Shown piece after piece: positions 42,141-55,490 of a DNA stretch of 64,000 nt. Numbering within the stretch: the first letter of the stretch is position 1; every line of letters begins with the position of its first letter. The notes beneath the pieces are model-generated. The model did not search any database. It worked only from the letters and a program-made list of their open reading frames with translations, and was not told the DNA's origin. The position numbers were made by a program, and so were the translations under genes. The stretch lies in NCBI RefSeq assembly GCF_023806625.1, contig NZ_JAMTDX010000008.1:62001-126000 (forward strand). Reading direction: 5' to 3'. This DNA is from Accumulibacter sp. GTDB taxonomy: Bacteria > Pseudomonadota > Gammaproteobacteria > Burkholderiales > Rhodocyclaceae.

Positions 42141-43064
42141 TCAGCGGCGAAGCAGCGAAACCAGTGTCGCCAGCATTGCGGCTGCGCACGCACCGTGGGC
42201 CACTGCGATCTCGATCGAATAGTTGCCAAGCACGAGCAGGCCACCGAGAAGCACTTCGGCCGGCAGCAGTGCGAGCATCAACATCGCGGACCGGCGTTTG
42301 CTTCGTTCGTCGAGCGCTCGCCACGCACCGCCACCAAGCAGGAGCAGCGTGGCCAGCGCCGAGTAGCGATGCAACAGGTGCAGGGCCTCGCCGGCGCGAT
42401 CTCCCGCCTGCGGAGCCCCGGAAAGACTGGCCAGCAACCCGAGTGCGGTCTCGGCGCCCACTCGCGGGAACCAGTTCCCGGCGCAATCGGGAAACGAGGC
42501 GCAGGTCAGCGCTGCATGACGCGCACCGATCATTGCTCCGAAAAAGACAGTCAGCGTAAGGCACAGCGCTCCGAGCCGCAGCAGTGGGTGCGCAGCGTCC
42601 ATGGCCGATCCACCCGCCGACGGTGAAGTGGCCAGGACCACGCGCCACGAAAAGCTGACCAGGCCCAATCCACCGAGGATGTTCAGCAGGTTGACCACGG
42701 TCAGCCGCGGGTCCGTGCTCCAGATACCCAGCGCCGAGAGGACCAGCATCAAGCCGAGGAGCGCAGTTGCCGGCCACGCGACCGGCATCAGCGGCGGCCG
42801 GCGCCAGCACTGCCAGACGACGATCACCGCGACGATCAGCGACAGCGAGGCGACCGCACGATGGAACACTCGCGCGGGCCCGAAGTACAGTGGTGGCGGC
42901 TCGCCGGCGAGCAGTTGGCCATAGCACGCCGGCCAGTCGGCGCAGCCGAGACCCGCCGCGTCGAGCCGCAGATAAGCGCTGGCCCCGACGACGAACAGCG
43001 AGAGGGCGACGAGCAGGAATCCCAGCCAGCGGACCATGCGCAGGCGGCCGGCGCCTCCGGACAT
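42141..43064 (-). CDS. ctaA: Heme A synthase homologue (CtaA type, Cys-containing)
   Basis: A 307-residue membrane protein with about eight helices and the CtaA/Cox15 two-fold repeat. AAGLGCADWPACYGQLL carries the Cys pair typical of bacterial CtaA; His ligands are in LHLLHRYSALATLLLL and IAVAHGACAAAML. Heme A synthase oxidises heme O to heme A for terminal oxidases. The start codon overlaps the stop of the upstream Cox15 homologue (TGATG), so the two are co-translated. Some His positions of the first half are less clear than in the partner. Confidence 0.85.
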   Translation of the reverse strand: MSGGAGRLRMVRWLGFLLVALSLFVVGASAYLRLDAAGLGCADWPACYGQLLAGEPPPLYFGPARVFHRAVASLSLIVAVIVVWQCWRRPPLMPVAWPATALLGLMLVLSALGIWSTDPRLTVVNLLNILGGLGLVSFSWRVVLATSPSAGGSAMDAAHPLLRLGALCLTLTVFFGAMIGARHAALTCASFPDCAGNWFPRVGAETALGLLASLSGAPQAGDRAGEALHLLHRYSALATLLLLGGGAWRALDERSKRRSAMLMLALLPAEVLLGGLLVLGNYSIEIAVAHGACAAAMLATLVSLLRR

Positions 43065-44116
43065 CAGAGGTGGCGCCCGACGACGCCTGGCGCCACGCGC
43101 AGTTCGTGGTTGAGCCAGAGCAACGCGGCAAGGACGACCATCGCCCCGCCCTGATGCGCAGTTCCGAGATCGACCGGGACGGCGAGAAGCAAGGTCGCGA
43201 TGCCCAGTCCGATCTGCACGAAAAGCACCACCAAGAGGCAGTTTGCCGCCAGACGGGCGCGCCCCGGAACCACCGCCGAGCGCACGGCCCACCAGAACCA
43301 GGGAACGAGGAAGGCCAGCAGCCATGCCCCCAGACGGTGGTTGAACTGGACGAGCGCCATATTGTTGAAGAAGTTGAGGTACCACGGTTCGAGGATGAAG
43401 CTTTCCGGCGGCAGCACGTGCCCGTGCATCAGCGGGAAACTGTTGTACGCCTTGCCGGCCCTGATACCGGCGACCAAGCCACCGGTGACGACCATGTAGC
43501 CGACCAGGGCGACCAGCCAGACGCCGGCGCGCTGCAGTTTGCGGACCAGTGCATCGTGCGTCACCGAAACCCGCTCGGCAACCAGTCCGAGCGCCAGCCA
43601 GAACATCGCGACGAAGATCAGGAAGGCGAGCGAGAGGTGCGCGGTTAGCCGGTAATGGCTCACTCGCGGATCGTCGACGAGACCGCTCTTGACCATGTAC
43701 CAGCCCATCGCCCCCTGAAGACCACCCAGGACGAAGATCCCGGCGAGTTTGGGCCACAGCGGTCGATCGATCTTCCCGCGCAGCCAGAAGAAGAGGAACG
43801 GCAGCAGGAAGACGACGCCGACCAGCCGCCCGAGAACGCGATGCACATATTCCCAGAAGAAGATCCCCTTGAACTCTTCGAGAGTCATCTGGTGATTGAC
43901 CTTCTCGAACTCGGGGGTCTTCCGGTATTTGGCGAAAGTCTCCTCCCATTGGTGCTCGTCGAGCGGCGGAACGATGCCGACGATCGGCTCCCATTCGACG
44001 ATCGACAAGCCCGAATGTGTCAGCCGGGTGATCCCTCCGACGACGAGGATGGCGAAGACCATCGCGCTGCAGGCTAGGAGCCAGCAAGCGATCTGCCGGC
44101 GAGCGACCTTATCCAT
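43064..44116 (-). CDS. ctaA: Heme A synthase (Cox15 type)
   Basis: A 350-residue membrane protein of the Cox15 subgroup (no Cys pair). Heme-ligand His and their context are all visible: GGITRLTHSGLSIVEWEPIV, WEYVHRVLGRLVGVVFLLP, HYRLTAHLSLAFLIFVAMFW, VQFNHRLGAWLLAFLVPWFW and LGTAHQGGAMVVLAALL. The start MDKVARRQIACWLL at 44116 is chosen; the longer frame upstream runs through the regulatory region of the ba3 operon. It is divergent from the oxidase genes it presumably serves. Confidence 0.9.
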   Translation of the reverse strand: MDKVARRQIACWLLACSAMVFAILVVGGITRLTHSGLSIVEWEPIVGIVPPLDEHQWEETFAKYRKTPEFEKVNHQMTLEEFKGIFFWEYVHRVLGRLVGVVFLLPFLFFWLRGKIDRPLWPKLAGIFVLGGLQGAMGWYMVKSGLVDDPRVSHYRLTAHLSLAFLIFVAMFWLALGLVAERVSVTHDALVRKLQRAGVWLVALVGYMVVTGGLVAGIRAGKAYNSFPLMHGHVLPPESFILEPWYLNFFNNMALVQFNHRLGAWLLAFLVPWFWWAVRSAVVPGRARLAANCLLVVLFVQIGLGIATLLLAVPVDLGTAHQGGAMVVLAALLWLNHELRVAPGVVGRHL

Positions 44117-44270
44117 GTGCGGAACCCGGAGAGAAGCGGAACGGGCGCAGATTATAGGCTCTTTCGCGGGGCGGTCCACGGCTCTGCGTGCTGCGACACG
44201 CAGCCGCAGGACCGGGCCCGGAAGCCGCTTCGCTGCTGGCTTTGCCGCAAGTGCCGAGCTTTTCCCGTTC

Positions 44271-44284
44271 TTGACGTGCATCAA
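44271..44284. promoter_or_regulatory. FNR/ANR-type box upstream of the ba3 oxidase operon
   Basis: TTGACGTGCATCAA matches the FNR consensus TTGAT-N4-ATCAA at 9 of 10 defined positions. A -10-like TATCCT at 44308-44313 places a start near 44319, which puts the box centre at -41.5, the classic activating position. It also faces the divergent Cox15 gene. Confidence 0.65.
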
Positions 44285-44401
44285 GTCGCTGGCTTGCCCG
44301 CAGCGGGTATCCTCGCGCCGATTGTGCCCCGAAAGGCCAAGGAGCTTACCCGTTTGCAGCACTCTTCCGGTGCCGCGCCACCCGCAATGGAGGATACCCA
44401 G

Positions 44402-44551
44402 ATGGCCGACAACAACGACGAAGACGTCCCGTTCATGCAGAAGTTGCTCGACAACCACTTCCTGCTGCTCTTTCTCGGCGTGGCCTCACCCGGGCTGCTG
44501 TACATCCTGTGGGGGATCATCGACATCATGAACGTGCCCGTCGCCCGATAA
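44402..44551 (+). CDS. 49-residue membrane peptide of the ba3-type oxidase
   Basis: A small protein (MADNNDEDVPFMQKLLDNHF, then one membrane helix LLLFLGVASPGLLYILWGII). A GGAGG site precedes the ATG by 7 bases, and the subunit II gene follows after 27 bases, so it is translated. Size and position recall the single-helix subunit IIa of Thermus ba3 oxidase; homology cannot be judged at this length. It is probably an accessory subunit in the inner membrane. Confidence 0.8.
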   Translation: MADNNDEDVPFMQKLLDNHFLLLFLGVASPGLLYILWGIIDIMNVPVAR

Positions 44552-44578
44552 CCTTTGCCTAAAGAGGGAGAAACCAGC

Positions 44579-45118
44579 ATGAGTGCAATTCTGCCGCCAT
44601 CCGAGAGACTCTGGTGGAAGCAGCCCATCGACAAGATCGAGTGGGCGTGGATCGCCATCGCGTTCGTCTGGGGCATGGTCATGTTCGTGATGATGATCTA
44701 TTGGCATATCAACGGGAAACAGAACCTGTCCAACGAGGTGTACAAGACGAGCCCAGAACTGTTCGCCGCCAAGGCCGAGAAGTTCATCGCCGAGAACACG
44801 GTGCGCACCGAGACCGACCAGCAGATCCCGGTGGTCAAGGTACCGGCCGGCGGAGACGGCTATCTGATCGCCCGGCTCTGGGCCTGGTACCCGATCCTCG
44901 AGCTCGAGAAAGGCAAGACCTACAAGATTCACCTCTCGTCGATGGACTACAACCACGGCTTCTCGCTGCAACCCGTGAATATCAACATCCAGGTCATTCC
45001 GGGCTATGAGCACGTGGTCAAGATGACTCCCACCAAGGAAGGTACCTACGCCATCGTCTGCAACGAATTCTGCGGCATCGGCCACCACTCGATGCTCGGC
45101 CGGATCTACGTGAAATAA
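44579..45118 (+). CDS. Cytochrome c oxidase subunit II, ba3/B-type
   Basis: A 179-residue subunit with one N-terminal membrane helix (about 22-42) and a periplasmic cupredoxin domain. The CuA site is YAIVCNEFCGIGHHSMLGRI (Cys-x3-Cys-x3-His, Met) with the upstream His in MDYNHGFSLQPVNINIQ. The single helix and short length are typical of B-type oxidases. The ATG at 44579 has a GGGAG site; the frame's upstream ATG at 44555 is not needed. It accepts electrons from cytochrome c. Confidence 0.92.
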   Translation: MSAILPPSERLWWKQPIDKIEWAWIAIAFVWGMVMFVMMIYWHINGKQNLSNEVYKTSPELFAAKAEKFIAENTVRTETDQQIPVVKVPAGGDGYLIARLWAWYPILELEKGKTYKIHLSSMDYNHGFSLQPVNINIQVIPGYEHVVKMTPTKEGTYAIVCNEFCGIGHHSMLGRIYVK

Positions 45119-45133
45119 GGGGGAACAAGTCAG

Positions 45134-46828
45134 ATGGCCACCACCTACCGCACCTGTCCCATCTCGGGACTCCAGTTCGAGGACCAGGCCGAGAAGCTGA
45201 TGCGCTGGAACGCCGTCGCCGGCGTCCTCGCCCTGCTCGCCGGCGGGATCACCGCGCTGCTCGTCATCCTCACCCGCTGGCCGGCGATCAAGCTGCTGCC
45301 GGCCGACCAGTTCTACCTGATCCTGACCGCCCACGGCGTCGACATGTTGATCCTGTGGATCATCTTCTTCGAGATAGCCGTGCTCTACTTCGCCTCATCG
45401 ACCCTTCTGCGCTGCCGACTGGCCGCGCCAAAGGTCGCCTGGTTCGCCTTCTGGCTGATGGTCGTCGGCAGCATCATGACCAATGTGGCGATCTTCCAGG
45501 GCGAATCGACGGTGATGTTCACCTCGTACGTGCCGATGCAGGCCAAGTGGCACTTCTACCTCGGCATCATTCTCTTCGCCGTCGGAGCACTGATCGGTTG
45601 CGGTATCTTCTTCGGCACGCTGGTCGTCGCCCGTCGCGAAAAGACCTACAGCGGATCGATCCCGCTGGTCACCTTCGGCGCGCTCACCGCCGCGATCATC
45701 GCCACATTCACGATTCTCTCCGGAGCCGGCATCCTGGTGCCGACCTTCCTCTGGGCGGTCGGAGTGATCAAGGAAATCGACGCGCAGCTCTACCGGATGG
45801 TCTGGTGGGGACTCGGCCATTCGTCGCAGCAGATCAACGTTTCCGCCCACGTCTCCATCTGGTACCTGATCGCCGCGGTCGTCTTCGGTGCCAAGCCGCT
45901 CTCCGAGAAGGTTTCGCGTTTTGCCTTCCTGCTCTACATCCTGTTCCTGCAACTGGCCAGCGCCCACCACCTGCTCTCGGACCCCGGCATGAGCGCCGAG
46001 TGGAAGGTCCTCAACACCTCGTATTTCATGTACTTCGCGGTGATGGCCTCGATGATCCACGGGTTCACCGTTCCCGGAGCGGTCGAGGCCGCGCAGCGGC
46101 GCAAGGGCTACACCAACGGCCTGTTCGAGTGGCTGCGCAAGGCGCCCTGGGGCAATCCGGTGTTTTCGGGAATGTTCATTTCGCTGGTCAGCTTCGGCTT
46201 CCTCGGTGGCATCTCCGGCGTAGTGCTCGGGACCGAGCAGATCAACATGCTGATGCACAACACCTTCTACGTGCCCGGCCACTTCCACACGACGGTCGTC
46301 TCGGGTACGACTCTGGCCTTCATGGCGGTCACCTACCTGCTCGTGCCAGTGCTCTTCAAACGTCAGATGATCCTGCCGAAGCTCTGCCAGATCCAGCCGT
46401 ACCTGTTCGGCATCAGCATGTCCGTCCTCGGCCTGGTGATGATGGGTGCCGGTACGCTCGGCGTATCCCGCCGGCACTGGGACATGGCCTTCTCTGGCGC
46501 GCCTTTCCAGTACGAATGGCCCGGTGCGGCGAACCTGATGATGGGCCTGACCGGCATCTTCGGTGTGCTCGCGGTGACCGGTGGCGCACTATGGATCCTC
46601 CTCGTCGTCGGCTCGCTGCTGTTCGGCAAGAAGCTCGACGGCGGCAAGGTCTCCGACCGGCCGACTCCGATTCCGGCAAGCACGCCGGCGGCCGCCGCGG
46701 TGGCCCACGGCAGCGATCACGTCGCGGTCCCGGGAACGGTCGTCCTCGCGCTGCTTCTGTTCGTCTGCTTCGTCCTCTACTACTTCGTCAACTGGAAGTA
46801 CCTCTCCGAAGTCTGGCTGCTCAGCTAG
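45134..46828 (+). CDS. Heme-copper oxidase subunit I, ba3/B-type
   Basis: A 564-residue catalytic subunit with about 13 membrane helices. Ligands: low-spin heme His in LTAHGVDMLILW (near 68) and PGHFHTTVVSG (near 383); high-spin heme His in the same PGHFH; CuB His in WWGLGHSSQQ (near 229) and the His pair in LQLASAHHLLSDPG (near 277). Low overall match to A-type CtaD and the small subunit II fit the high-affinity B family. It reduces oxygen to water and pumps protons. A hairpin pair follows before ctaB. Confidence 0.92.
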   Translation: MATTYRTCPISGLQFEDQAEKLMRWNAVAGVLALLAGGITALLVILTRWPAIKLLPADQFYLILTAHGVDMLILWIIFFEIAVLYFASSTLLRCRLAAPKVAWFAFWLMVVGSIMTNVAIFQGESTVMFTSYVPMQAKWHFYLGIILFAVGALIGCGIFFGTLVVARREKTYSGSIPLVTFGALTAAIIATFTILSGAGILVPTFLWAVGVIKEIDAQLYRMVWWGLGHSSQQINVSAHVSIWYLIAAVVFGAKPLSEKVSRFAFLLYILFLQLASAHHLLSDPGMSAEWKVLNTSYFMYFAVMASMIHGFTVPGAVEAAQRRKGYTNGLFEWLRKAPWGNPVFSGMFISLVSFGFLGGISGVVLGTEQINMLMHNTFYVPGHFHTTVVSGTTLAFMAVTYLLVPVLFKRQMILPKLCQIQPYLFGISMSVLGLVMMGAGTLGVSRRHWDMAFSGAPFQYEWPGAANLMMGLTGIFGVLAVTGGALWILLVVGSLLFGKKLDGGKVSDRPTPIPASTPAAAAVAHGSDHVAVPGTVVLALLLFVCFVLYYFVNWKYLSEVWLLS

Positions 46829-46945: not shown

Positions 46946-47842
46946 ATGCCAACGACTCTCCGAGCGAAAGGCCTTCGCAGTTTCCCGCTCCGCACCATCC
47001 TCGGCGTCTTCAAGCTGCGCATCGGCGTGGTGATCACGCTGACCGCGCTCACCGGCCTGGCCGTGAGTCCGGGCCCGAGTCCGAGCCTGGCGCAGATTCT
47101 CGTCCTGGCCCTCTCGGTGCTCGTTTCATCGGCCAGCGCGGGCGCCTTCAACCAGTATTACGAATCCGACCGGGATCGGCTGATGTCGCGGACCCGCGGC
47201 CGCCCGTTCGTCACCGGCGAGGTGCGCCGCGGGCCGCTCTGGCTTCTGGCGATCGTCGTGCTGACCGTCCTGGCGGTGGCGGCAGCGTGGCTGGTGCTCA
47301 ACCCCTGGTCGGCGTTCTTCGTCTTCTTTGGCGCGTTCTTCTACGCGATCGTCTACACCGTCTGGCTCAAGCGGCGCACCTGGCTGAACATCGTCTTCGG
47401 CGGGCTGGCCGGCAGTTGGGCGGTTCTCGCCGGCGCGACCGCCGCCGACCCTCAGCCCGGAGCCGCGCCGCTGGCGCTCGCGCTGGTCCTCTTCCTGTGG
47501 ACGCCGCCGCATTTCTGGAGCCTGGCGCTCGCCTATCGCGACGACTACGCGGCCGCCGGAGTACCGATGCTGCCGGTCGTCGTCGGCGAGCAGCGGGCTG
47601 CACAGACGATCTTCGGGAGCACGCTGGCGCTGGTCGCCGCGAGCCTGCTGCCGCTCGCCACGGGCCTCGGCGTGATCTACGGCATCGGCGCGTGCGCCGG
47701 CGGCGGCCTGTTCATCGCCAAGGCCTGGCGCCTGAGCCGTGAGCCGACGCGCGGCAATGCACTGAGCTGCTTCCACGCCTCGCTGGCACAACTGAGCCTC
47801 GTGCTGCTCGCCGCGATGGTCGACTCGCGAGTCGCTTCGTGA
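46946..47842 (+). CDS. ctaB: Protoheme IX farnesyltransferase (heme O synthase)
   Basis: Adds farnesyl to heme B, making heme O for the oxidase. A 298-residue UbiA-type membrane protein with about eight helices. The first Asp-rich motif is NQYYESDRDRLMSRTRGRPF (near 66), and the second is ALAYRDDYAAAGVPMLPVV (near 195). It is followed by the SCO gene after 13 bases, the usual cluster of oxidase assembly genes. Confidence 0.95.
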   Translation: MPTTLRAKGLRSFPLRTILGVFKLRIGVVITLTALTGLAVSPGPSPSLAQILVLALSVLVSSASAGAFNQYYESDRDRLMSRTRGRPFVTGEVRRGPLWLLAIVVLTVLAVAAAWLVLNPWSAFFVFFGAFFYAIVYTVWLKRRTWLNIVFGGLAGSWAVLAGATAADPQPGAAPLALALVLFLWTPPHFWSLALAYRDDYAAAGVPMLPVVVGEQRAAQTIFGSTLALVAASLLPLATGLGVIYGIGACAGGGLFIAKAWRLSREPTRGNALSCFHASLAQLSLVLLAAMVDSRVAS

Positions 47843-47855
47843 CGGAGAACATCCG

Positions 47856-48725
47856 GTGATCGAACGTTTCCGTCGCCTCGTCTGCGCGCTGCTCCTCGCT
47901 CTGGCCGCAGGACAGGCACCTGCTTCCGAGCACCCGGACGAAAAGCCCAGGCTGACCGCGCGAGCGCAAGGTCTGAACACCGACCTCCAGTTGACCAGCC
48001 TCGACGAGAAAGCCGCCTTCGCGCTCTCACAGGGCGTCATCGGCCACCAGATCGGCGACTTCGTCCTCCTCGACCGACAGGGCAGACCCGTCGAACTGTC
48101 GCGTTACCGTGGCAAGCCGCTGCTCGTCACCTTCATCTACACCGCCTGCTTCCGGGTCTGTCCGACGATCACCCGCAACCTGCAGAAGGCCGTGCAGAAC
48201 ACGGTCGGCCTGATGGGCGCCGACCGCTTCAACGTGATCAGCATCGGCTTCAACCAGCCCTTCGACTCCCCCGAGGCGCTCCGGGATTTTGCCACGCAGT
48301 ACGGAATTCGCCTGCCCAACTGGGAGTTCCTGAGCCCGGCACCGGCAATCGTCGGCGAACTGACGCGCAGCTTCGGCTTCAGCTACGTCGCCACGCCCGC
48401 CGGATTCGACCATATCAATCAGGTCACTCTCGTCGATGCGAGCGGAACGATCGTCCGACAGGTCTACGGCGAGAAGTTCACCGCCGAGGACATCGCCGAA
48501 CCGCTCAAGACGCTGATCACCGGATCGGCAATTCCGCCCGAAGTCGGCACGCTCGAGGAAATCGTCGACCGGGTGCGCATCCTCTGCTCGGTCTACGATC
48601 CGCTGACCGGTCGTTACCGGACCAACTACTCGCTCTACTTCCAGTTCGCCGGCTTCCTGAGCTTTGCCGGCTTCATGATCTACCTCTCGATCCACTTCTG
48701 GAGAAACCGTCGTCGCTCGGGGTAG
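47856..48725 (+). CDS. SCO1/SenC-type copper chaperone with C-terminal anchor
   Basis: A 289-residue protein: signal peptide (about 1-24), a thioredoxin-like SCO domain with the copper-binding Cys pair TACFRVCPTITRNLQ (Cys-x3-Cys, near 109) and the His in ATPAGFDHINQVTLV (near 187), then an extra C-terminal membrane helix (GFLSFAGFMIYLSIHFW). It assists CuA assembly in oxidases. The start is GTG at 47856. Most SCO proteins are anchored at the N-terminus; a C-terminal anchor is less common. It lies between ctaB and the first cytochrome b fusion. Confidence 0.88.
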   Translation: MIERFRRLVCALLLALAAGQAPASEHPDEKPRLTARAQGLNTDLQLTSLDEKAAFALSQGVIGHQIGDFVLLDRQGRPVELSRYRGKPLLVTFIYTACFRVCPTITRNLQKAVQNTVGLMGADRFNVISIGFNQPFDSPEALRDFATQYGIRLPNWEFLSPAPAIVGELTRSFGFSYVATPAGFDHINQVTLVDASGTIVRQVYGEKFTAEDIAEPLKTLITGSAIPPEVGTLEEIVDRVRILCSVYDPLTGRYRTNYSLYFQFAGFLSFAGFMIYLSIHFWRNRRRSG

Positions 48726-48889: not shown

Positions 48890-50509
48890 GTGAAGTTCCA
48901 CGCAGCCTTGCGCGCGGGCGTGAGGAGTATTTTTCTGCGCGTCGAGGAAGCTCTCGACGCGCCTTTCGGTGGAGCAGACAATCCGTTGCGCCATCTCGGC
49001 GCGATCGGCCTGTATCTGCTGTGGATCGTGGTCGGGACGGGGATCTACCTCTACACGGTGCTCGACACCGGCATCGCAGCGGTGTATCGCTCGATCGGGC
49101 AGCTATCCACCGACCAGTGGTACCTCGGCGGAATCCTGCGCAGCCTGCACCGCTATTCAGCCGATGGCTTCGTTCTGGTGATGATGCTGCATCTGGTCCG
49201 TGAATGGTGCTACGGGCGCTACCACGGGTTCCGTCTGTACTCATGGGTGACTGGCGTGCCGCTGATCTGGCTCGCTTACATGGCCGGAATCGGCGGCTAC
49301 TGGATCGTCTGGGACCAGCTGGCCCAGTTGTCGGCGCTGTCCACCGCCGAGTTGCTCGACTGGCTGCCGGTGATCAGCGAGCCGACGGCGCGCAACTTCC
49401 TGGCCCCGGATTCGATCAGCGACCGCTTCTTCACGATGCTCGTCTTCCTCCACCTCGGCGTCCCGCTGTTGCTGATCCTCGGCCTCTGGGCTCACGTCCA
49501 TCGGATCAGCCACGTCGATTACCTGCCGTCGCGTCGGGCGATGCTCGCCACCTTGGCCGCGCTCCTCGTTCTCGCACTGATCAGACCGGTGGCCAGCCAC
49601 CCTCCGGCGAACCTGGCGACCGTTCCCCGAGACGTGGCGCTCGACTGGTTCATCCTGTTCATCCACCCGCTCACCGATCTCGGCTCGCCAGCGATCGTCT
49701 GGGCACTGCTCTTCGCGGCGACGATCGTCCTCTGCGCACTGCCGATCCTGCCTCACCCGGCGCGGGACCCTGTCGCCGTCGTCACCCCGGCGAGGTGCAC
49801 GGGTTGTGACCGCTGTCTCGCCGACTGCCCGTACGCAGCGATCACCATGACGCCGCATCCGCTGCGGCCTGGTTCGAACCTCGCCGTCGTCGACGCCGAC
49901 CTCTGCGCCGCCTGCGGGATCTGCGCAGGTTCGTGTCCCTCATCGACGCCTTTCCGCAGGCAGCCGACCCTGGTCACCGGGATCGACATGCCGCAACTGC
50001 CGGTCAACGCGCTGCGCGAGTGTCTCGATCGGTCGCTTGGCGAACACCGGCACGAGCCGACGATCGTCGTCTTTGCCTGCTCGCGAGCCGCTGACGCGAA
50101 CGCCCTGGCGATGCCGGACGCGATCGTCGTACCGTTGCCATGCACCGGCATGCTGCCACCCTCGTTCGTCGAGTACGCTCTACGCACGGGCGCAGACGGC
50201 GTGCTGCTGACCACCTGTCGGGCGGGCGGTTGCGCGTTCCGACTCGGCGAACGGTGGACAGCCGAGCGGCTCGCCGGTCGGCGCGAGCCTCACCTGCGGC
50301 GTAACGTTCCCCGGGATCTCGTCGCGGTCGTGCCGCTCGCCGTCGGAGACAGCGCGGCGCTCGACGCCGCTCTGGCGTCGTTCCGGCGCAACCTGCAGGG
50401 CGGTCCGGCGGCGAGCGCGTCCCTGCCGCCGTACGAAGTCTTGCGCAGACCCACGGCTGAACCGGTCTTCGGCAGTGTCCGGTCGCCGGATCCGCGGATA
50501 TCTGCCTGA
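48890..50509 (+). CDS. Cytochrome b - 2x[4Fe-4S] ferredoxin - MvhD-like fusion
   Basis: A 539-residue membrane redox protein. Residues about 1-290 are a cytochrome b N-terminal half with two bis-His pairs, each 14 apart (LHRYSADGFVLVMMLH near 87/101; FLHLGVPLLLILGLWAH near 187/201) and VPRDVALDWFILF where bc1 proteins have PEWY. Residues about 300-355 are a two-cluster ferredoxin (CTGCDRCLADCP and CAACGICAGSCP). Residues about 390-455 resemble MvhD/FlpD, the electron-transfer subunit of heterodisulfide reductase systems (FACSRAADA, LPCTGMLPPSFV, GADGVLLTTCRAGGCAF), with one of the usual Cys missing. The start follows a CGGAG site. Confidence 0.85.
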   Translation: MKFHAALRAGVRSIFLRVEEALDAPFGGADNPLRHLGAIGLYLLWIVVGTGIYLYTVLDTGIAAVYRSIGQLSTDQWYLGGILRSLHRYSADGFVLVMMLHLVREWCYGRYHGFRLYSWVTGVPLIWLAYMAGIGGYWIVWDQLAQLSALSTAELLDWLPVISEPTARNFLAPDSISDRFFTMLVFLHLGVPLLLILGLWAHVHRISHVDYLPSRRAMLATLAALLVLALIRPVASHPPANLATVPRDVALDWFILFIHPLTDLGSPAIVWALLFAATIVLCALPILPHPARDPVAVVTPARCTGCDRCLADCPYAAITMTPHPLRPGSNLAVVDADLCAACGICAGSCPSSTPFRRQPTLVTGIDMPQLPVNALRECLDRSLGEHRHEPTIVVFACSRAADANALAMPDAIVVPLPCTGMLPPSFVEYALRTGADGVLLTTCRAGGCAFRLGERWTAERLAGRREPHLRRNVPRDLVAVVPLAVGDSAALDAALASFRRNLQGGPAASASLPPYEVLRRPTAEPVFGSVRSPDPRISA

Positions 50510-50599: not shown

Positions 50600-51097
50600 A
50601 TGCCCAAACCCGCCGCGATAGCCGGCCAGGTCGTCCTCTACGGCGCCTTCGCCGCTTTCATCGGCTACTTCGCCACCTCGCCGAAGTACCGGCAGATCCC
50701 CGACGACGCTGCGCTGATCAAGCTGTCGATCAACCACCTCGGCGAGCGCGAGTGCCGCAAGCGGAGCCCCGAGGAACTCGCCCGCCTGCCGCCGAACATG
50801 CGCGCGCCGCTGGACTGCCCGCGTGAGCGCTCGGACATCAGGCTGGAAATGGACCTCGACGGAGAGCCGGTCCTGCGCACGACGATGCATCCAACCGGAC
50901 TCTACAAGGACGGCATCTCGACCATCTACCGCCGCTTCGAGGTCAAGGCGGGCAGCCACGAGGTGGCCGTGCGCATGAACGACAACGCCGTGAAACCTGG
51001 CTTCGCCTTCGTCCGGGAAGGCCGGGTGACGCTCGCCCCGGGACAGGTGATGGTCATCGACTTCAACCCGGACATGGGCGGGCTGTTCTTCAAGTGA
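50600..51097 (+). CDS. Small anchored protein between the cytochrome b fusions
   Basis: A 165-residue protein I do not recognise. It has an N-terminal membrane anchor (about 6-25, AIAGQVVLYGAFAAFIGYFA) followed by a soluble, probably periplasmic domain rich in beta segments (DGEPVLRTTMHPTGLYKDGI, FEVKAGSHEVAVRMNDNAVK, LAPGQVMVIDFNPDMGGLFF). Two Cys (ECRKRS, LDCPRERS) could form a disulfide; there is no heme or cluster motif. Its place between two related cytochrome b genes, all on the plus strand, suggests a subunit or assembly factor for one or both. Confidence 0.8.
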   Translation: MPKPAAIAGQVVLYGAFAAFIGYFATSPKYRQIPDDAALIKLSINHLGERECRKRSPEELARLPPNMRAPLDCPRERSDIRLEMDLDGEPVLRTTMHPTGLYKDGISTIYRRFEVKAGSHEVAVRMNDNAVKPGFAFVREGRVTLAPGQVMVIDFNPDMGGLFFK

Positions 51098-51192: not shown

Positions 51193-53109
51193 ATGGTCAA
51201 AGTCCTGCAAGTCTGTCTGCGCTGGCTGTTCATGCGCGTCGAGAACGTCTTCAACGTCGCCTTCGGCGACAAGATGAACCCGTTCTATCACCTCGGGACG
51301 ATCAGCTTCTGGCAATTCTGGCTGCTGGTCGTCTCGGGACTCTACCTGTACATCTTCGCCGACACCGGAGTGCACAAGGCCTTCGAGTCGGTAGAGTCGA
51401 TCACCCATGACCAGTGGTGGGCTGGAGGCCTCCTGCGCAGCATCCATCGCTACGCGACCGACGGCATGATCCTGACGATGCTGCTGCACATGCTGCGCCA
51501 TTTCGCCTACGACCGCTACCGCGGCTTCCGCTCGTTCTCCTGGTTGACCGGCGTCGCGCTGCTCTGGCTGGTCTATATCGCCGGCGTCAACGGCTTCATG
51601 CTCGTCTGGGACAAGCTCGCCCAGTTCGTCGTCGTTGCCACGGCCGAATGGTTCGATGCGCTGCCGATCTTCAACGGCACGATGATCCGCAACTTCCTCT
51701 ACCTCGAGACGGTCAACAGCCGCCTGTTCACGCTGCTCGCGTTCATTCACATCGGCGCCCCGCTGATCGTCGTGTTCATCATGTGGGTCCATGTCCAGCG
51801 GGTGCCGCGCGCGCACATCAATCCGCCGCGCCCGATCGCCGTCGCCGTCACGCTGATGTTTCTGCTGCTCGCGCTGGTCAAACCGATCGTCAGCCAGGGC
51901 GGCGAGGCCGATCTGTCGGTCGTGCCGACGAACATCGCCTTCGACTGGTTCGAGCTGCCGGTTCTCGCGCTCGTCTATGTCGTCAACCCGCTGCACCTAT
52001 GGTACTGGGTTCTCGGTCTGACCGCCCTGCTCTTCCTCGTCCCCTGGCTGCCGCCGAAGCGGCGCGGCGCGGCGAAGGCGCAGACGGCGATCACCTTCCA
52101 CCCCGACCGGCGGACCGTCTCAGCGCGCTTCGGTGAGACGCTGCTCGACGCCGGCCTGCGCCAGGATATCGACCTGCCGTACGAATGCCGAAACGGTGGC
52201 TGCGGCGTTTGCAAGTGCACCGTGCTCAGCGGCAAGGTCGATCCGGGTCTCTATCAGCCGAGCGTGCTCTCGCCGGTTGAACTCGCCCAGGGCAAGGTCC
52301 TGCTCTGCTGCGCCACGGCGATCGAAGACGCTGAAATCGAGTACCAGCCGCGCACCGCGGCGAGCCGAATCCGGGAATACCGTGCGCAGGTCGCAGAGAT
52401 GCACAAGCTCGCCCACGACGTGATGCTCGTCCGGCTGCGGCTTCCTCCCGGCGAGACGATCGCCTTCAAGGCTGGCCAGTACATCAACGTGATTCTCGAT
52501 GATGGGCAGCGGCGCGCCTTCTCGTTCGCCAATCCGCCGCACGAACCCGAGTTCGTCGAGCTGCAGATCCGCCTGATGCCCGGTGGGCGATTCACCACCC
52601 AGGTCTTCGAAACGATGAAGGTCGGCGACGAGCTGCGCTTCGAGGGACCGCTCGGAGACTTCACGCTACGCGAATCTTCGCGCCCGATCGTTTTCGTCGC
52701 CGGCGCGACCGGCTTCGCTCCGGTCAAGAGCATGGTCGAGGACGCCTTCCAGCGCGGCCTGACCAGGCCGATTCATCTGTACTGGGGAGTGCGCAGCCTC
52801 AAGGATCTCTATCTGCCCGAACTTCCCGAGCGCTGGGCACGCGACCACGACAACTTCCATTTCATCCCCGTGCTTTCCGAACCGGCTGCCGAAGACGCCT
52901 GGTCGGGACGAACTGGCCTCGTCCACGAAGCCATTCTCGAGGACTTCCCCGAACTCAGGGAGCACGAGATCTACGCCTGCGGCTCGGTGCGCATGGTCGA
53001 AGCGATCTTTCCGTTCCTCAAGCAGCACGGCGCCGAAGACGGTGCGTGCTTCTCCGATGCGTTCAGCGTCTCGGCGCGATCGATGGCCTTCCAGCCCCGG
53101 CAATCGTAG
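51193..53109 (+). CDS. Cytochrome b - [2Fe-2S] ferredoxin - FAD - NAD(P) reductase fusion
   Basis: A 638-residue protein. Residues about 1-290 are a cytochrome b half with bis-His pairs (SIHRYATDGMILTMLLH near 85/99; FIHIGAPLIVVFIMWVH near 186/200) and VPTNIAFDWFELP in the PEWY position. Residues about 298-385 are a plant-type ferredoxin (YECRNGGCGVCKC, then LLCCAT). Residues about 395-615 are a ferredoxin-reductase module: FAD site RRAFSFAN, NAD(P) site FVAGATGFAPVKSMV and IYACGSVRMVE. The last three domains match phenol-hydroxylase-reductase-type proteins. The fusion should pass electrons between NAD(P)H and the quinone pool, or in reverse. Confidence 0.9.
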   Translation: MVKVLQVCLRWLFMRVENVFNVAFGDKMNPFYHLGTISFWQFWLLVVSGLYLYIFADTGVHKAFESVESITHDQWWAGGLLRSIHRYATDGMILTMLLHMLRHFAYDRYRGFRSFSWLTGVALLWLVYIAGVNGFMLVWDKLAQFVVVATAEWFDALPIFNGTMIRNFLYLETVNSRLFTLLAFIHIGAPLIVVFIMWVHVQRVPRAHINPPRPIAVAVTLMFLLLALVKPIVSQGGEADLSVVPTNIAFDWFELPVLALVYVVNPLHLWYWVLGLTALLFLVPWLPPKRRGAAKAQTAITFHPDRRTVSARFGETLLDAGLRQDIDLPYECRNGGCGVCKCTVLSGKVDPGLYQPSVLSPVELAQGKVLLCCATAIEDAEIEYQPRTAASRIREYRAQVAEMHKLAHDVMLVRLRLPPGETIAFKAGQYINVILDDGQRRAFSFANPPHEPEFVELQIRLMPGGRFTTQVFETMKVGDELRFEGPLGDFTLRESSRPIVFVAGATGFAPVKSMVEDAFQRGLTRPIHLYWGVRSLKDLYLPELPERWARDHDNFHFIPVLSEPAAEDAWSGRTGLVHEAILEDFPELREHEIYACGSVRMVEAIFPFLKQHGAEDGACFSDAFSVSARSMAFQPRQS

Positions 53110-53184: not shown

Positions 53185-53781
53185 TCAGTTTGCGGTCAGC
53201 CGATCGAGAACGGGTTCGAGGGTCTGTTCGTCGAGCCGGCCGAGGCGGCTCATCGCGAAGCGCCCGTGGTGGTCGATGACCACCGTATACGGCAGCCCGC
53301 GGACCTGCAGCGCCGCCGTCTGCGTCCCGGCTGCCTCGCCGACAAGCAGCGGATAGCCGACCGGAGTCTTCCGCGCGAACGCCTGAAGACGTTCGGGCTC
53401 GTCGATCCCGATGCCCACGAACTGCACGCCCCGCGCCGCATAGCGTTGCTGGAGACGCGAGAAGGCCGGCATCTCTTCGAGGCACGGCGCGCACCAGCTC
53501 GCCCAGTAGTTGACCACCAGCACCTTGCCGCGCCACTGCGCGATACTCTGACGACGGCCGTCGAGATCAGGCAGGACCAAGGCCATGATCGCATCGGTGG
53601 CCGCCTGCCCCTGTTCCGGCGGCAGCGACTGGGTCGAGATCGATCCCGCGGGTGGGGCGGACGGGGCGAGCGGCGCCGGCTGGCGCCCCTGCTCAAAGAC
53701 CCGATAGCCGAGCCAGCCGGTGCCGGCCAGGGTCAACAGCACGAAACCGAGCGCCAGAGCGAGCGCGTGTCCCGGCTTCAT
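53185..53781 (-). CDS. TlpA/ResA-like membrane-anchored thioredoxin
   Basis: A 198-residue periplasmic thiol-disulfide protein with an N-terminal anchor (MKPGHALALALGFVLLTLAG) and a thioredoxin fold. The active site is VVNYWASWCAPCLEEMPAFS (CAPC), and the cis-Pro region is VRGLPYTVVIDHHGR. TlpA proteins reduce Cys ligands during CuA or cytochrome c maturation. The start overlaps the stop of the oxidase-like gene (ATGA), tying it to that protein. Confidence 0.9.
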   Translation of the reverse strand: MKPGHALALALGFVLLTLAGTGWLGYRVFEQGRQPAPLAPSAPPAGSISTQSLPPEQGQAATDAIMALVLPDLDGRRQSIAQWRGKVLVVNYWASWCAPCLEEMPAFSRLQQRYAARGVQFVGIGIDEPERLQAFARKTPVGYPLLVGEAAGTQTAALQVRGLPYTVVIDHHGRFAMSRLGRLDEQTLEPVLDRLTAN

Positions 53782-55142
53782 TGGCCGCTGCGCCGCGACA
53801 TCGCCTTGAGGCAGACGACGACGAACATCAATCCGCCGACGACGGCAATCAATCCACCGAGGCCCATCATGCCCATGCCGACCTTCTGCGGCCAGGTGGT
53901 CAGCAGCTGGTCTGCACCGGCGACCTTGCGCTGTACGCCATAGCCTCCCGACCACGCGAGACCGAGGATGTGGATCAACTGGCCCAGTCCATAGACATGC
54001 GGCTGCCAGACGGCGAGCCAGCCCTCGGGCCGAGCAAAGCCGAGCGCCGGCAGAAGAGCGTAGGCCAGACCCATGAAGGCCAGCGTCACGCCGACCGTCG
54101 ACCCGTGATAGTGCGCAGGAATGACCACGTTCACGCCCTGGATCAGGTAGCCGAGGACGCCGCCGAGCGCAAAGAGCACGAAGGACTCGAGCAGCGCCGA
54201 CTTCGCCGGATCAGGCGGAGAGCGACGCAGGCCAACGAGGGCGAGGAACCCGACGACGATCAGCGGCAACATGTACGGATGGCCCCAGATCATCAGTCTG
54301 GCGAAGAGATCCATGTGCTCCAGCGAGCCACCCGGGACAAGCAGGTAAATCGTCGGGATGGCCAGCAGCGGCAGCGCGGCGACGATGAAGAGGACGGACT
54401 GCGCACGCGCCGAGACCCGCGACGGGTGGCCGAGGCCGGCGGCAATCCACAGCCAGGCGACGACCATCAGCAGTGAATGCTGGAACTGCAGCGTGTGTCC
54501 GCCGCCCCAGAAGAGCACCTCGAAATAGACTGTCTCCTCGATTTGCGGCACCGTCAGCCACGACCAGAAAAACGCGACCAGCGACAACAGAGCCGCCAGG
54601 GCGCCGAGGAAGGCGCCGAGCCGCAACGGCTCCCCGAGGAATTTTTCCGGCCAGGTGCACCATAGCGCACGCACGACGGCAAGACACAGGCCGCCAGCAA
54701 AGAGCCAGAGCGAGGCGAAGAACAGTGGCTGCCTGAGCACCGGAATGTAGTTGTTGAGGACCGGCTCGGCCCCGGGGAAGAACGGCGAGATGCTCATCAG
54801 GGCGGTTCCGACCGCTGCCAAGGCGAAACCGCTCCAGCCGAGCCAGGCGAGGCCAGCTCCGCCGACACTGCTCCAGATCACCGCCGCAAAAGCCATGAAC
54901 CAGACGGCCACCGACAAATCGACGTGCACGACGAGCGCCGCGCGAAACAGATCCTTCAGCGGAAAGACGTCCTGAATACCCGGCGTTCGCGAAAGAACGA
55001 GCAACACGGCGAGCACGCCCGAGCCGATCAGGGCCATCACGCCGAGCCATAGCCAGGCCCGGGCCAGGCTTGCCGGAGTCCCCGCGAGGATCACCGGAAC
55101 CCGGCCCTGCCCGGGAGAAACGCTTGCCGAAAGAGAATTCAC
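53778..55142 (-). CDS. Heme-copper oxidase-like subunit I lacking the CuB His pair
   Basis: A 454-residue protein with about 12 membrane helices, related to the ba3 subunit I at 45134. Conserved: His in VVHVDLSVAVWF (near 73), FWGGGHTLQFQHS (near 216) and PAHYHGSTVGVTLAFMG (near 344/346). Where the functional paralogue has SAHHLL it has PTIYLL, so two of three CuB ligands appear lost by my alignment. The GTG start at 55142 follows a GAGGA site; the frame's TTG at 55160 is less likely. There is no subunit II gene nearby; the partner is the TlpA-like gene. Function is unknown: perhaps a heme sensor, an NO-handling protein or a quinol/cytochrome interaction subunit. Confidence 0.8.
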   Translation of the reverse strand: MNSLSASVSPGQGRVPVILAGTPASLARAWLWLGVMALIGSGVLAVLLVLSRTPGIQDVFPLKDLFRAALVVHVDLSVAVWFMAFAAVIWSSVGGAGLAWLGWSGFALAAVGTALMSISPFFPGAEPVLNNYIPVLRQPLFFASLWLFAGGLCLAVVRALWCTWPEKFLGEPLRLGAFLGALAALLSLVAFFWSWLTVPQIEETVYFEVLFWGGGHTLQFQHSLLMVVAWLWIAAGLGHPSRVSARAQSVLFIVAALPLLAIPTIYLLVPGGSLEHMDLFARLMIWGHPYMLPLIVVGFLALVGLRRSPPDPAKSALLESFVLFALGGVLGYLIQGVNVVIPAHYHGSTVGVTLAFMGLAYALLPALGFARPEGWLAVWQPHVYGLGQLIHILGLAWSGGYGVQRKVAGADQLLTTWPQKVGMGMMGLGGLIAVVGGLMFVVVCLKAMSRRSGQ

Positions 55143-55490
55143 TGTATCCTCACAGGACAATCACCCGCTGGCGCCCGCATCGGTCTCCGGCCTTCCGGAC
55201 GGCGTCCTGCAAGGCAACCCGACCCGACCTGCGCCGGAGCAGCAATGCGCCGACCCGAGATCCCCTCAGACCCACGCCACACCGGACCGCCGAACTGCCC
55301 GGAAAGGCGACGATTATAGGCGATGAACAATCGATCCTCGCGCTTCCCGCCGAACAAACGACGATCGCGCTCGTCGTCGTGCTCATGTATTTGAGGCCGG
55401 AACACGCCGGACGCACAACGAGCCGCCGCGAGTGGCCGCGGCGTCCCGGAGGACCCGGCGATGGAAGCGTCCATCCTCCGATCCGGGGTC
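55143..55490. other. Intergenic region upstream of the oxidase-like gene
   Basis: 348 bases before the ATP-grasp gene's stop. No FNR box, repeat or credible open frame seen. It presumably holds the promoter of the 53778-55142 gene. Confidence 0.45.

What the first reader, a model, noticed from the sequence alone, without database searches (positions are those of the whole stretch)
48890..50509. Second cytochrome b fusion with two [4Fe-4S] clusters and an MvhD-like domain
A paralogous cytochrome b half (DWFIL in place of PEWY) is followed by CTGCDRCLADCP and CAACGICAGSCP clusters and a domain like MvhD/FlpD, which normally hands electrons to heterodisulfide-reductase flavoproteins. No HdrA is in the window. 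A membrane cytochrome b directly wired to MvhD suggests an unusual route between quinone and a low-potential partner. One of the standard MvhD Cys is missing (FACSRA), so the cluster there may be altered.
Basis: partly seen in the sequence, partly recalled or inferred. Interest (0 to 1): 0.85.

Follow-up and report, generated by a model that had tools for sequence, protein, structure and literature searches.

The report
Likely electron partner of NO reductase
A wastewater bacterium carries a membrane haem protein fused to iron-sulfur domains, and its gene keeps close company with an overlooked nitric-oxide reductase, so it probably handles electrons for that nitrous-oxide-forming enzyme.

Summary
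The gene is real: 48890-50509 (+) encodes 539 aa with cytochrome b, two [4Fe-4S] clusters and a genuine FlpD/MvhD domain. Across 106 homologous rows, both haem-ligand pairs, eight ferredoxin Cys and four FlpD Cys are invariant or nearly so, so the 'missing' Cys is no defect. HdrA is not the partner: this is the genome's only FlpD, and the HdrA2 model finds no HdrA there. The neighbours give the meaning. The upstream 'ba3 oxidase' has Gln for the catalytic Tyr in 70 of 70 homologues, the published eNOR nitric-oxide-reductase signature (PMC8756737). In 398 Pseudomonadota genomes eNOR occurs in 30, the fusion in 29 of those and in 5 others. Among 101 relatives it is in 40 of 42 eNOR genomes and 0 of 59 others. 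Linkage is sometimes broken, yet co-occurrence stays. A TM/beta-sandwich protein accompanies it (80 of 82 loci). In one genome a cyt b-[2Fe-2S]-FAD-NAD fusion takes its place. Best reading: a dedicated redox module of eNOR; electron direction is inferred. My paper searches found no description, but the main eNOR paper was not readable.

The parts
48890..50509 (+). cytochrome b - 2x[4Fe-4S] - FlpD fusion protein, 539 aa (the finding)
   Evidence: conserved ligands in 106 rows
48935..49762 (+). cytochrome b domain (residues 16-291): four-helix haem core plus two more TM helices; haem ligands H87/H188 and H101/H202 (pairing by homology); D252-W253-F254 where bc complexes have PEWY
49772..49945 (+). 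dicluster ferredoxin domain, residues 295-352, eight Cys
50069..50395 (+). FlpD/MvhD domain, residues 394-502; invariant C397, C418, C443, C448
50600..51097 (+). 165-aa protein: N-terminal helix (TM-like) plus beta-sandwich; steady neighbour of the fusion
   Evidence: no Pfam or NCBIfam match; 80 of 82 sources; 33 of 398 genomes, all holding the fusion; model pLDDT 92.7
45134..46828 (+). eNOR-type NO reductase subunit I (usually annotated ba3/cytochrome c oxidase subunit I); active site H229-S-S-Q232-Q233, Gln at the Tyr position
   Evidence: (70 of 70), alignment with ba3 oxidase
44555..45118 (+). eNOR subunit II (start uncertain), cupredoxin with CuA-type motif CNEFCGIGHHSM
44402..44551 (+). 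49-aa single-TM-like protein directly upstream, like subunit IIa of B-family enzymes
   Evidence: translation and position; the assignment is by position and length, recalled
46946..47842 (+). haem O synthase (CtaB/CyoE)
   Evidence: TIGR01473 273 bits against a cut-off of 210.3
47856..48725 (+). SCO1/SenC-type protein
   Evidence: PF02630
51193..53109 (+). sister fusion: cytochrome b - [2Fe-2S] - FAD - NAD (BenC-like reductase)
   Evidence: FNR-type cytochrome b halves form one 100/100 clade
43067..44458 (-). haem A synthase CtaA/COX15 (start uncertain), divergent to the cluster

Best explanation
The protein is the membrane part of a dedicated redox module of an eNOR-type (B-family, CuA, Gln-for-Tyr) nitric-oxide reductase. 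Two b haems span the membrane; two [4Fe-4S] clusters and the FlpD [2Fe-2S] cluster hang on the cytoplasmic side; the 165-aa TM/beta-sandwich protein is its periplasm-side partner. Most likely electrons enter from a cytoplasmic carrier through FlpD, run FlpD -> ferredoxin clusters -> haem bH -> haem bL/quinone, and end at eNOR, which reduces NO to N2O. FlpD acts as a docking plug for a donor other than HdrA. In many Betaproteobacteria a second copy carries a NAD(P)H-reductase plug instead. Shown: the architecture, conserved ligands, the predicted bc1-type cytochrome b fold, co-occurrence with eNOR, and exchange of the plug in one genome. Inferred: the side of the membrane (by homology), the direction of electron flow, the identity of the cytoplasmic donor, and contact with eNOR or with the 165-aa protein.
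For: Ligands of both b haems, two [4Fe-4S] and one [2Fe-2S] are kept in at least 105 of 106 rows. The gene lies with eNOR subunits, CtaB and SCO in many loci (of 82 sources: SCO 72, subunit I 66, CtaB 60, subunit II 58, many contigs being cut) and on an alphaproteobacterial plasmid. Of 398 genomes, 29 of 30 eNOR genomes have the fusion, and the one miss ends its contig 34 bases after SCO. By the tool's family labels, 11 of 12 eNOR families have it and no family without eNOR does. 101 relatives: 40 of 42 against 0 of 59. Co-occurrence holds where the genes are apart (L158, L210, L211, L212). G081 has eNOR-CtaB-SCO-cytb-FNR-165-aa protein without the FlpD fusion, so the input domain is exchangeable (L218). 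The predicted fold over 16-291 is bc1 cytochrome b, which by homology puts the C-terminal domains in the cytoplasm. Cytochrome d1 domains are in 40 of 42 eNOR genomes against 24 of 59 others. The FlpD is not Hdr-linked here.
Against: No experiment shows contact with eNOR, electron direction or donor. G044 has eNOR and the 165-aa protein with a cytochrome b of 309 aa and no soluble domain detected nearby (L217), so a soluble input domain may not be obligatory. Five of 398 genomes have the fusion but no eNOR hit (G220, G236, G244, G324, G374; completeness 82, 77, 96, 74, 69%; G244 is in 730 contigs). eNOR has CuA and is reported to use cytochrome c (PMC8879329, passages), so it need not require this module. 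In strain UW-LDO-IC the 'ba3' transcripts changed little and grouped with aerobically expressed genes (PMC6446978, passages), which does not suggest a denitrification role there. The 165-aa protein shows no redox cofactor motif, so no p-side electron path is visible. Related genomes are not independent samples.
Confidence: 0.5

Rival explanations
1. Electrons run the other way. Quinol is oxidised at a Qo-like site; its electrons pass the b haems to the cytoplasmic clusters and reduce a ferredoxin or NAD(P)+, driven by proton-motive force or by giving the partner electron to eNOR.
For: The Qo-loop acid is kept as Asp252 (104 of 106) with Trp253 (106 of 106). The neighbouring cyt b-FNR fusion is probably the 'novel quinol reductase' proposed to let Accumulibacter reoxidise quinol anaerobically (cited in PMC4930944, passage; the match to this gene is my recall of Garcia Martin 2006).
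Against: No Rieske protein or cytochrome c1/f is among the identified cluster genes. PEWY is lost. No HdrA-type partner.
Confidence: 0.2
2. A biogenesis factor: the fusion supplies reducing equivalents for building eNOR (copper loading with SCO, haem A synthesis with CtaA).
For: It often lies next to CtaB and SCO, with CtaA divergent in the window; the 165-aa TM/beta-sandwich protein has two invariant Cys, Cys52 and Cys73, in 35 rows, and resembles a copper-chaperone layout only in outline.
Against: Sixteen conserved metal ligands for two haems and three clusters are more than a maturation reductase needs; the genes also stand apart from CtaB/SCO yet still co-occur with eNOR (L158, L166, L210-L212). 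No chaperone fold was matched, which does not exclude one.
Confidence: 0.15
3. One reading: a quinone/low-potential link that hands electrons to Hdr-type flavoproteins through MvhD.
For: True FlpD domain; the Fd+FlpD stretch matches the C-terminal part of HdrA2 (positions 571-768, E 1.6e-18).
Against: No HdrA found with the HdrA2 model in the genome; the fusion is the only FlpD above cut-off in 26 of 28 genus genomes.
Confidence: 0.05
4. It belongs to an ordinary ba3-type O2 oxidase operon.
For: Subunit I is B-family (best PDB matches are ba3-type and related oxidases) and a ba3 oxidase (cbaAB) is reported for all Accumulibacter genomes, with aerobic-type expression in one strain (PMC6446978, passages).
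Against: The Tyr needed for O2 chemistry is Gln in 70 of 70; by its motifs this is the only B-family enzyme among the genome's PF00115 matches.
Confidence: 0.05

Closest known systems
eNOR gene clusters ('ba3-a1' of alphaproteobacterial surveys)
   Same: B-family subunit I without the catalytic Tyr, cupredoxin subunit II, SCO in the cluster (passages of PMC6431628; PMC8756737; PMC8879329)
   Different: The passages I read do not mention a cyt b-Fd-FlpD fusion or the 165-aa protein as members; figures were not seen
Accumulibacter 'novel quinol reductase' (Garcia Martin 2006, seen only as cited in PMC4930944)
   Same: Probably the adjacent cyt b - FAD/NAD fusion (recalled); sister cytochrome b family
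   Different: Its soluble part is a NAD(P)H reductase, not Fd-FlpD; NO reduction was not part of the proposal as cited
Chloroflexi ORF RME88945.1 (Table A3 of PMC8756737, passage)
   Same: Listed with cytochrome b6, DMSOR-beta-like FeS and FlpD domains
   Different: It is in a list of ORFs with a cytochrome c (C1) domain; listed only in the passage seen, and I did not fetch it
MvhD/FlpD with HdrABC, HdrA2, Qmo
   Same: FlpD domain and ferredoxin neighbour
   Different: No HdrA flavoprotein found; a bc-type cytochrome b sits in the same chain
Cytochrome bc1/b6f cytochrome b
   Same: Fold and two bis-His haems with 14-residue spacing
   Different: Two TM helices after the four-helix core, PEWY changed to xDWF, no Rieske or c1/f gene identified in the cluster, FeS domains fused

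Membership tests
FlpD/MvhD (PF02662) | Profile match over the curated cut-off | tested here: met
   44.9 bits against 22.3
FlpD/MvhD (PF02662) | Cys set for one [2Fe-2S] cluster | tested here: met
   Four Cys invariant in 106 of 106 rows; MvhD has extra Cys in its FCCNWC stretch that are absent here
FlpD/MvhD (PF02662) | Works with an HdrA-type flavoprotein | tested here: not met
   HdrA2 model in the own genome: best match is this protein's own Fd-FlpD part; HdrA flavin part below 20 bits. Other HdrA models were not run on the genome
Cytochrome b of bc complexes (PF00033) | Fold and four haem-ligating His | tested here: met
   106 of 106 for each His
Cytochrome b of bc complexes (PF00033) | PEWY motif | tested here: not met
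   xDW[F/Y]: D252 in 104, W253 in 106 of 106
Cytochrome b of bc complexes (PF00033) | Rieske and cytochrome c1/f in the same cluster | tested here: not met
   Not among the cluster genes identified; the rest of the genome was not searched for them
eNOR (for the neighbouring subunits) | Gln in place of the active-site Tyr in subunit I | tested here: met
   70 of 70 (rows with under 0.75 coverage or under 30% identity left out); criterion from PMC8756737 section 2.7.1
eNOR (for the neighbouring subunits) | Cupredoxin subunit II | tested here: met
   COX2 domain; C169 in 71, C173, H177 and M180 in 70 of 71 rows
eNOR (for the neighbouring subunits) | NO reductase activity | not testable with these tools
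   needs purified enzyme
HdrABC/Qmo-type complexes | HdrA/QmoA flavoprotein subunit | tested here: not met
   own genome; QmoA models were not run

The most novel reading that the evidence does not exclude
The two cytochrome b fusions and the 165-aa protein form a Rieske-free, bc-like bifurcating complex: quinol oxidised at an Asp-Trp-Phe Qo site sends its high-potential electron toward eNOR's CuA and its low-potential electron across the b haems to ferredoxin (FlpD plug) or NAD(P)+ (FNR plug). NO reduction would then pay for low-potential reductant.
Probability: 0.1. Interest if true: 0.92.

Novelty: new variant of a known kind. Interest (0 to 1): 0.62.

Why it matters
eNOR makes N2O and is often annotated as an oxygen-reducing oxidase (PMC8756737). 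In this genome it is the only NO reductase recognised by the searches I ran: the PF00115 matches are, by motif, an A-type and a cbb3-type oxidase, eNOR and one divergent protein, and there is no qNOR domain; flavodiiron or other NO-removing enzymes were not searched. Of 18 genomes of the genus examined for qNOR, 13 lack it, while all 18 have eNOR. A partner protein so closely tied to eNOR would (i) be a marker that helps to separate eNOR from ba3 oxidases, (ii) suggest that eNOR is fed from the cytoplasm rather than only through cytochrome c, and (iii) change how N2O formation by Accumulibacter, a main phosphorus-removing organism of wastewater plants, is modelled.

Tried and rejected

'Accumulibacter' with 'eNOR' gave 0 papers. 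Of the 15 listed of 79 papers, only PMC8756737 holds the word FlpD. Murali et al. 2024 (the main eNOR paper) is not held; a DOI that I recalled for Skennerton 2015 is not held; Garcia Martin 2006 was not looked up. A published mention of this gene cannot be excluded. Papers were read as passages only (PMC4930944, PMC6446978, PMC8756737, PMC11388526, PMC10734462, PMC8879329, PMC8114936, PMC4653789, PMC8239418, PMC6431628).

Sampling limits: one search confirmed 201 relatives and kept the best 80; one search used those 80, the plasmid locus and the window (82 sources). The 165-aa protein was missed in 2 of 82 (L099, L110), whose contigs end with the fusion gene. The 106 rows leave out matches under 420 residues or up to 35% identity and may hold near-copies of one species. 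Phyla other than Pseudomonadota were not searched.

Full report

Is it intact? In 106 homologous rows (loci, and the window; matches under 420 residues or up to 35% identity left out) the four haem His are 106 of 106. The eight ferredoxin Cys are 106 or 105 of 106, the single exception L086 having gaps or an X at three of them. The four FlpD Cys are 106 of 106. D252 is 104 and W253 106 of 106. MvhD of methanogens has further Cys in its FCCNWC stretch, which here are variable.

The neighbours. Upstream lie a B-family haem-copper subunit I and a cupredoxin subunit II, haem O synthase and SCO; downstream a 165-aa protein and a second cytochrome b fusion, to [2Fe-2S]-FAD-NAD. The best PDB relatives of subunit I are B-family oxidases, mostly ba3; in the alignment the GHPIVY of ba3 stands against GHSSQQ. 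In 70 of 70 aligned homologues the Tyr position is Gln. PMC8756737 (passages) uses this Gln to define eNOR and states that many eNORs appear to be misannotated as cytochrome c oxidase. PMC6431628 (passages) describes the tyrosine-less 'ba3-a1' with SCO in its operon. PMC8879329 (passages) says that this subtype was renamed eNOR after NO reductase activity was reported. In the own genome the PF00115 search finds, by motif, an A-type, a cbb3-type, this enzyme, and a fourth divergent protein below cut-off (type names from motifs, recalled). The 'ba3 (cbaAB)' oxidase reported in all Accumulibacter genomes (PMC6446978, passages) is therefore very probably this eNOR (inference). There its transcripts in strain UW-1 were high in the anaerobic stages and fell after aeration. 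In UW-LDO-IC, however, changes were small and the genes grouped with those expressed at high oxygen, which speaks against a simple denitrification role in that strain.

How tight is the tie? I searched 398 Pseudomonadota genomes, drawn the same way, three times. The fusion was in 34 (E <= 1e-25, each with a near full-length match), eNOR subunit I in 30 (E <= 1e-60) and the 165-aa protein in 33 (E <= 1e-5). Twenty-nine of 30 eNOR genomes have the fusion; the exception G169 ends its contig 34 bases after SCO. Five have the fusion without an eNOR hit (G220, G236, G244, G324, G374), four of them 69-82% complete and one in 730 contigs. Fisher p is 8e-38, but the genomes are related; by the tool's family labels, 11 of 12 eNOR families have the fusion and no other family does. 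Among 101 closer relatives, eNOR is in 42. The fusion (counting three genomes with a cut gene: G002, G012, G041) is in 40 of these and in 0 of the 59 others. In several genomes the two loci are apart: G134, G165 and G173 have subunits II and I and SCO without the fusion in the 17-19 kb taken (L210-L212), and G165 and G145 have the fusion and 165-aa protein without eNOR genes in the 18 kb taken (L158, L166). So the tie is not just linkage. An alphaproteobacterial plasmid carries the whole set from subunit II to the 165-aa protein.

A swap tells about mechanism. The two exceptions among relatives are G081, where cyt b-FNR plus the 165-aa protein stand in the cluster without the FlpD fusion (L218), and G044, where a 309-aa cytochrome b of the FNR type has no soluble domain detected in the stretch (L217). 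In 17 loci of genomes related only at phylum level (L151-L156, L158-L168; three of them on contigs under 6 kb) the FNR fusion was not found beside the FlpD fusion. Cytochrome b plus the 165-aa protein is therefore the constant part, and the cytoplasmic plug varies. That is what one expects of a module that couples different cytoplasmic carriers to one membrane process. The 165-aa gene usually follows the fusion, but in some loci (L104, L115, L157, L169) it lies between the two cytochrome b fusions.

Mechanism. I commit to a dedicated redox module for eNOR, with electrons most likely entering from the cytoplasm (confidence 0.5 for the whole statement; about 0.75 for 'functional partner of eNOR' alone, and lower for direction). 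Against it: eNOR's CuA can take electrons from cytochrome c, the 165-aa protein has no visible cofactor site (two invariant Cys in 35 rows), and no wet data exist. The reverse direction and a biogenesis role remain open.

NO context. Cytochrome d1 domains (nitrite-reductase type, also NirF/NirN) occur in 40 of 42 eNOR genomes against 24 of 59 others, and three strong ones are in the own genome. A protein with cytochrome c and D1 domains (Pfam for L161) lies beside the cluster in several loci. Of 18 genus genomes examined, qNOR is in 5, and not in the own genome. PMC6446978 says that no Accumulibacter genome has norBC (passage).

Novelty. eNOR and FlpD are known. A cyt b6-FeS-FlpD ORF was listed once for Chloroflexi, among ORFs with a cytochrome c domain (PMC8756737, Table A3). 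The near-strict tie of this fusion and of the 165-aa protein to eNOR was not found in the held library, but the main eNOR paper was not readable here. I call it a new variant of a known kind.

Noticed in passing
window 53778-55160 (-): A 460-aa haem-copper-oxidase-like protein (PF00115 below cut-off) with H79, H222, Q225, H350, H352 conserved in an alignment of 53, but the Cu_B His-His region varies (WGHPYM in some, GGG in others). It was found near the fusion in 49 of 82 sources, in some loci inside the eNOR cluster; function unknown.
   Followed up: partly
window 50600-51097 (+): Family of 165-aa TM-plus-beta-sandwich proteins with no Pfam or NCBIfam match, found in 33 of 398 genomes, all of which hold the cytochrome b-FlpD fusion.
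   Followed up: partly
window 44555-46828 (+): The 'ba3 oxidase' of Accumulibacter is an eNOR by its active site; 13 of 18 genus genomes examined have no qNOR domain, so eNOR may be their main NO reductase.
   Followed up: partly
L151, L152, L156, L165: Genomes of one other family label (f72; 1.2-1.9 Mb assemblies) carry two tandem cytochrome b-FlpD genes, which form two clades.
   Followed up: no
   Followed up: partly
window 42144-44458 (-): Two CtaA/COX15-like genes side by side; the second (42144-43052) is a weaker match and may be a specialised haem A synthase for eNOR.
   Followed up: no
window 51193-53109 (+): Cytochrome b - [2Fe-2S] - FAD - NAD fusion, probably the published Accumulibacter 'quinol reductase' (recalled); here it lies in an eNOR cluster, which suggests re-examining that proposal.
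   Followed up: partly
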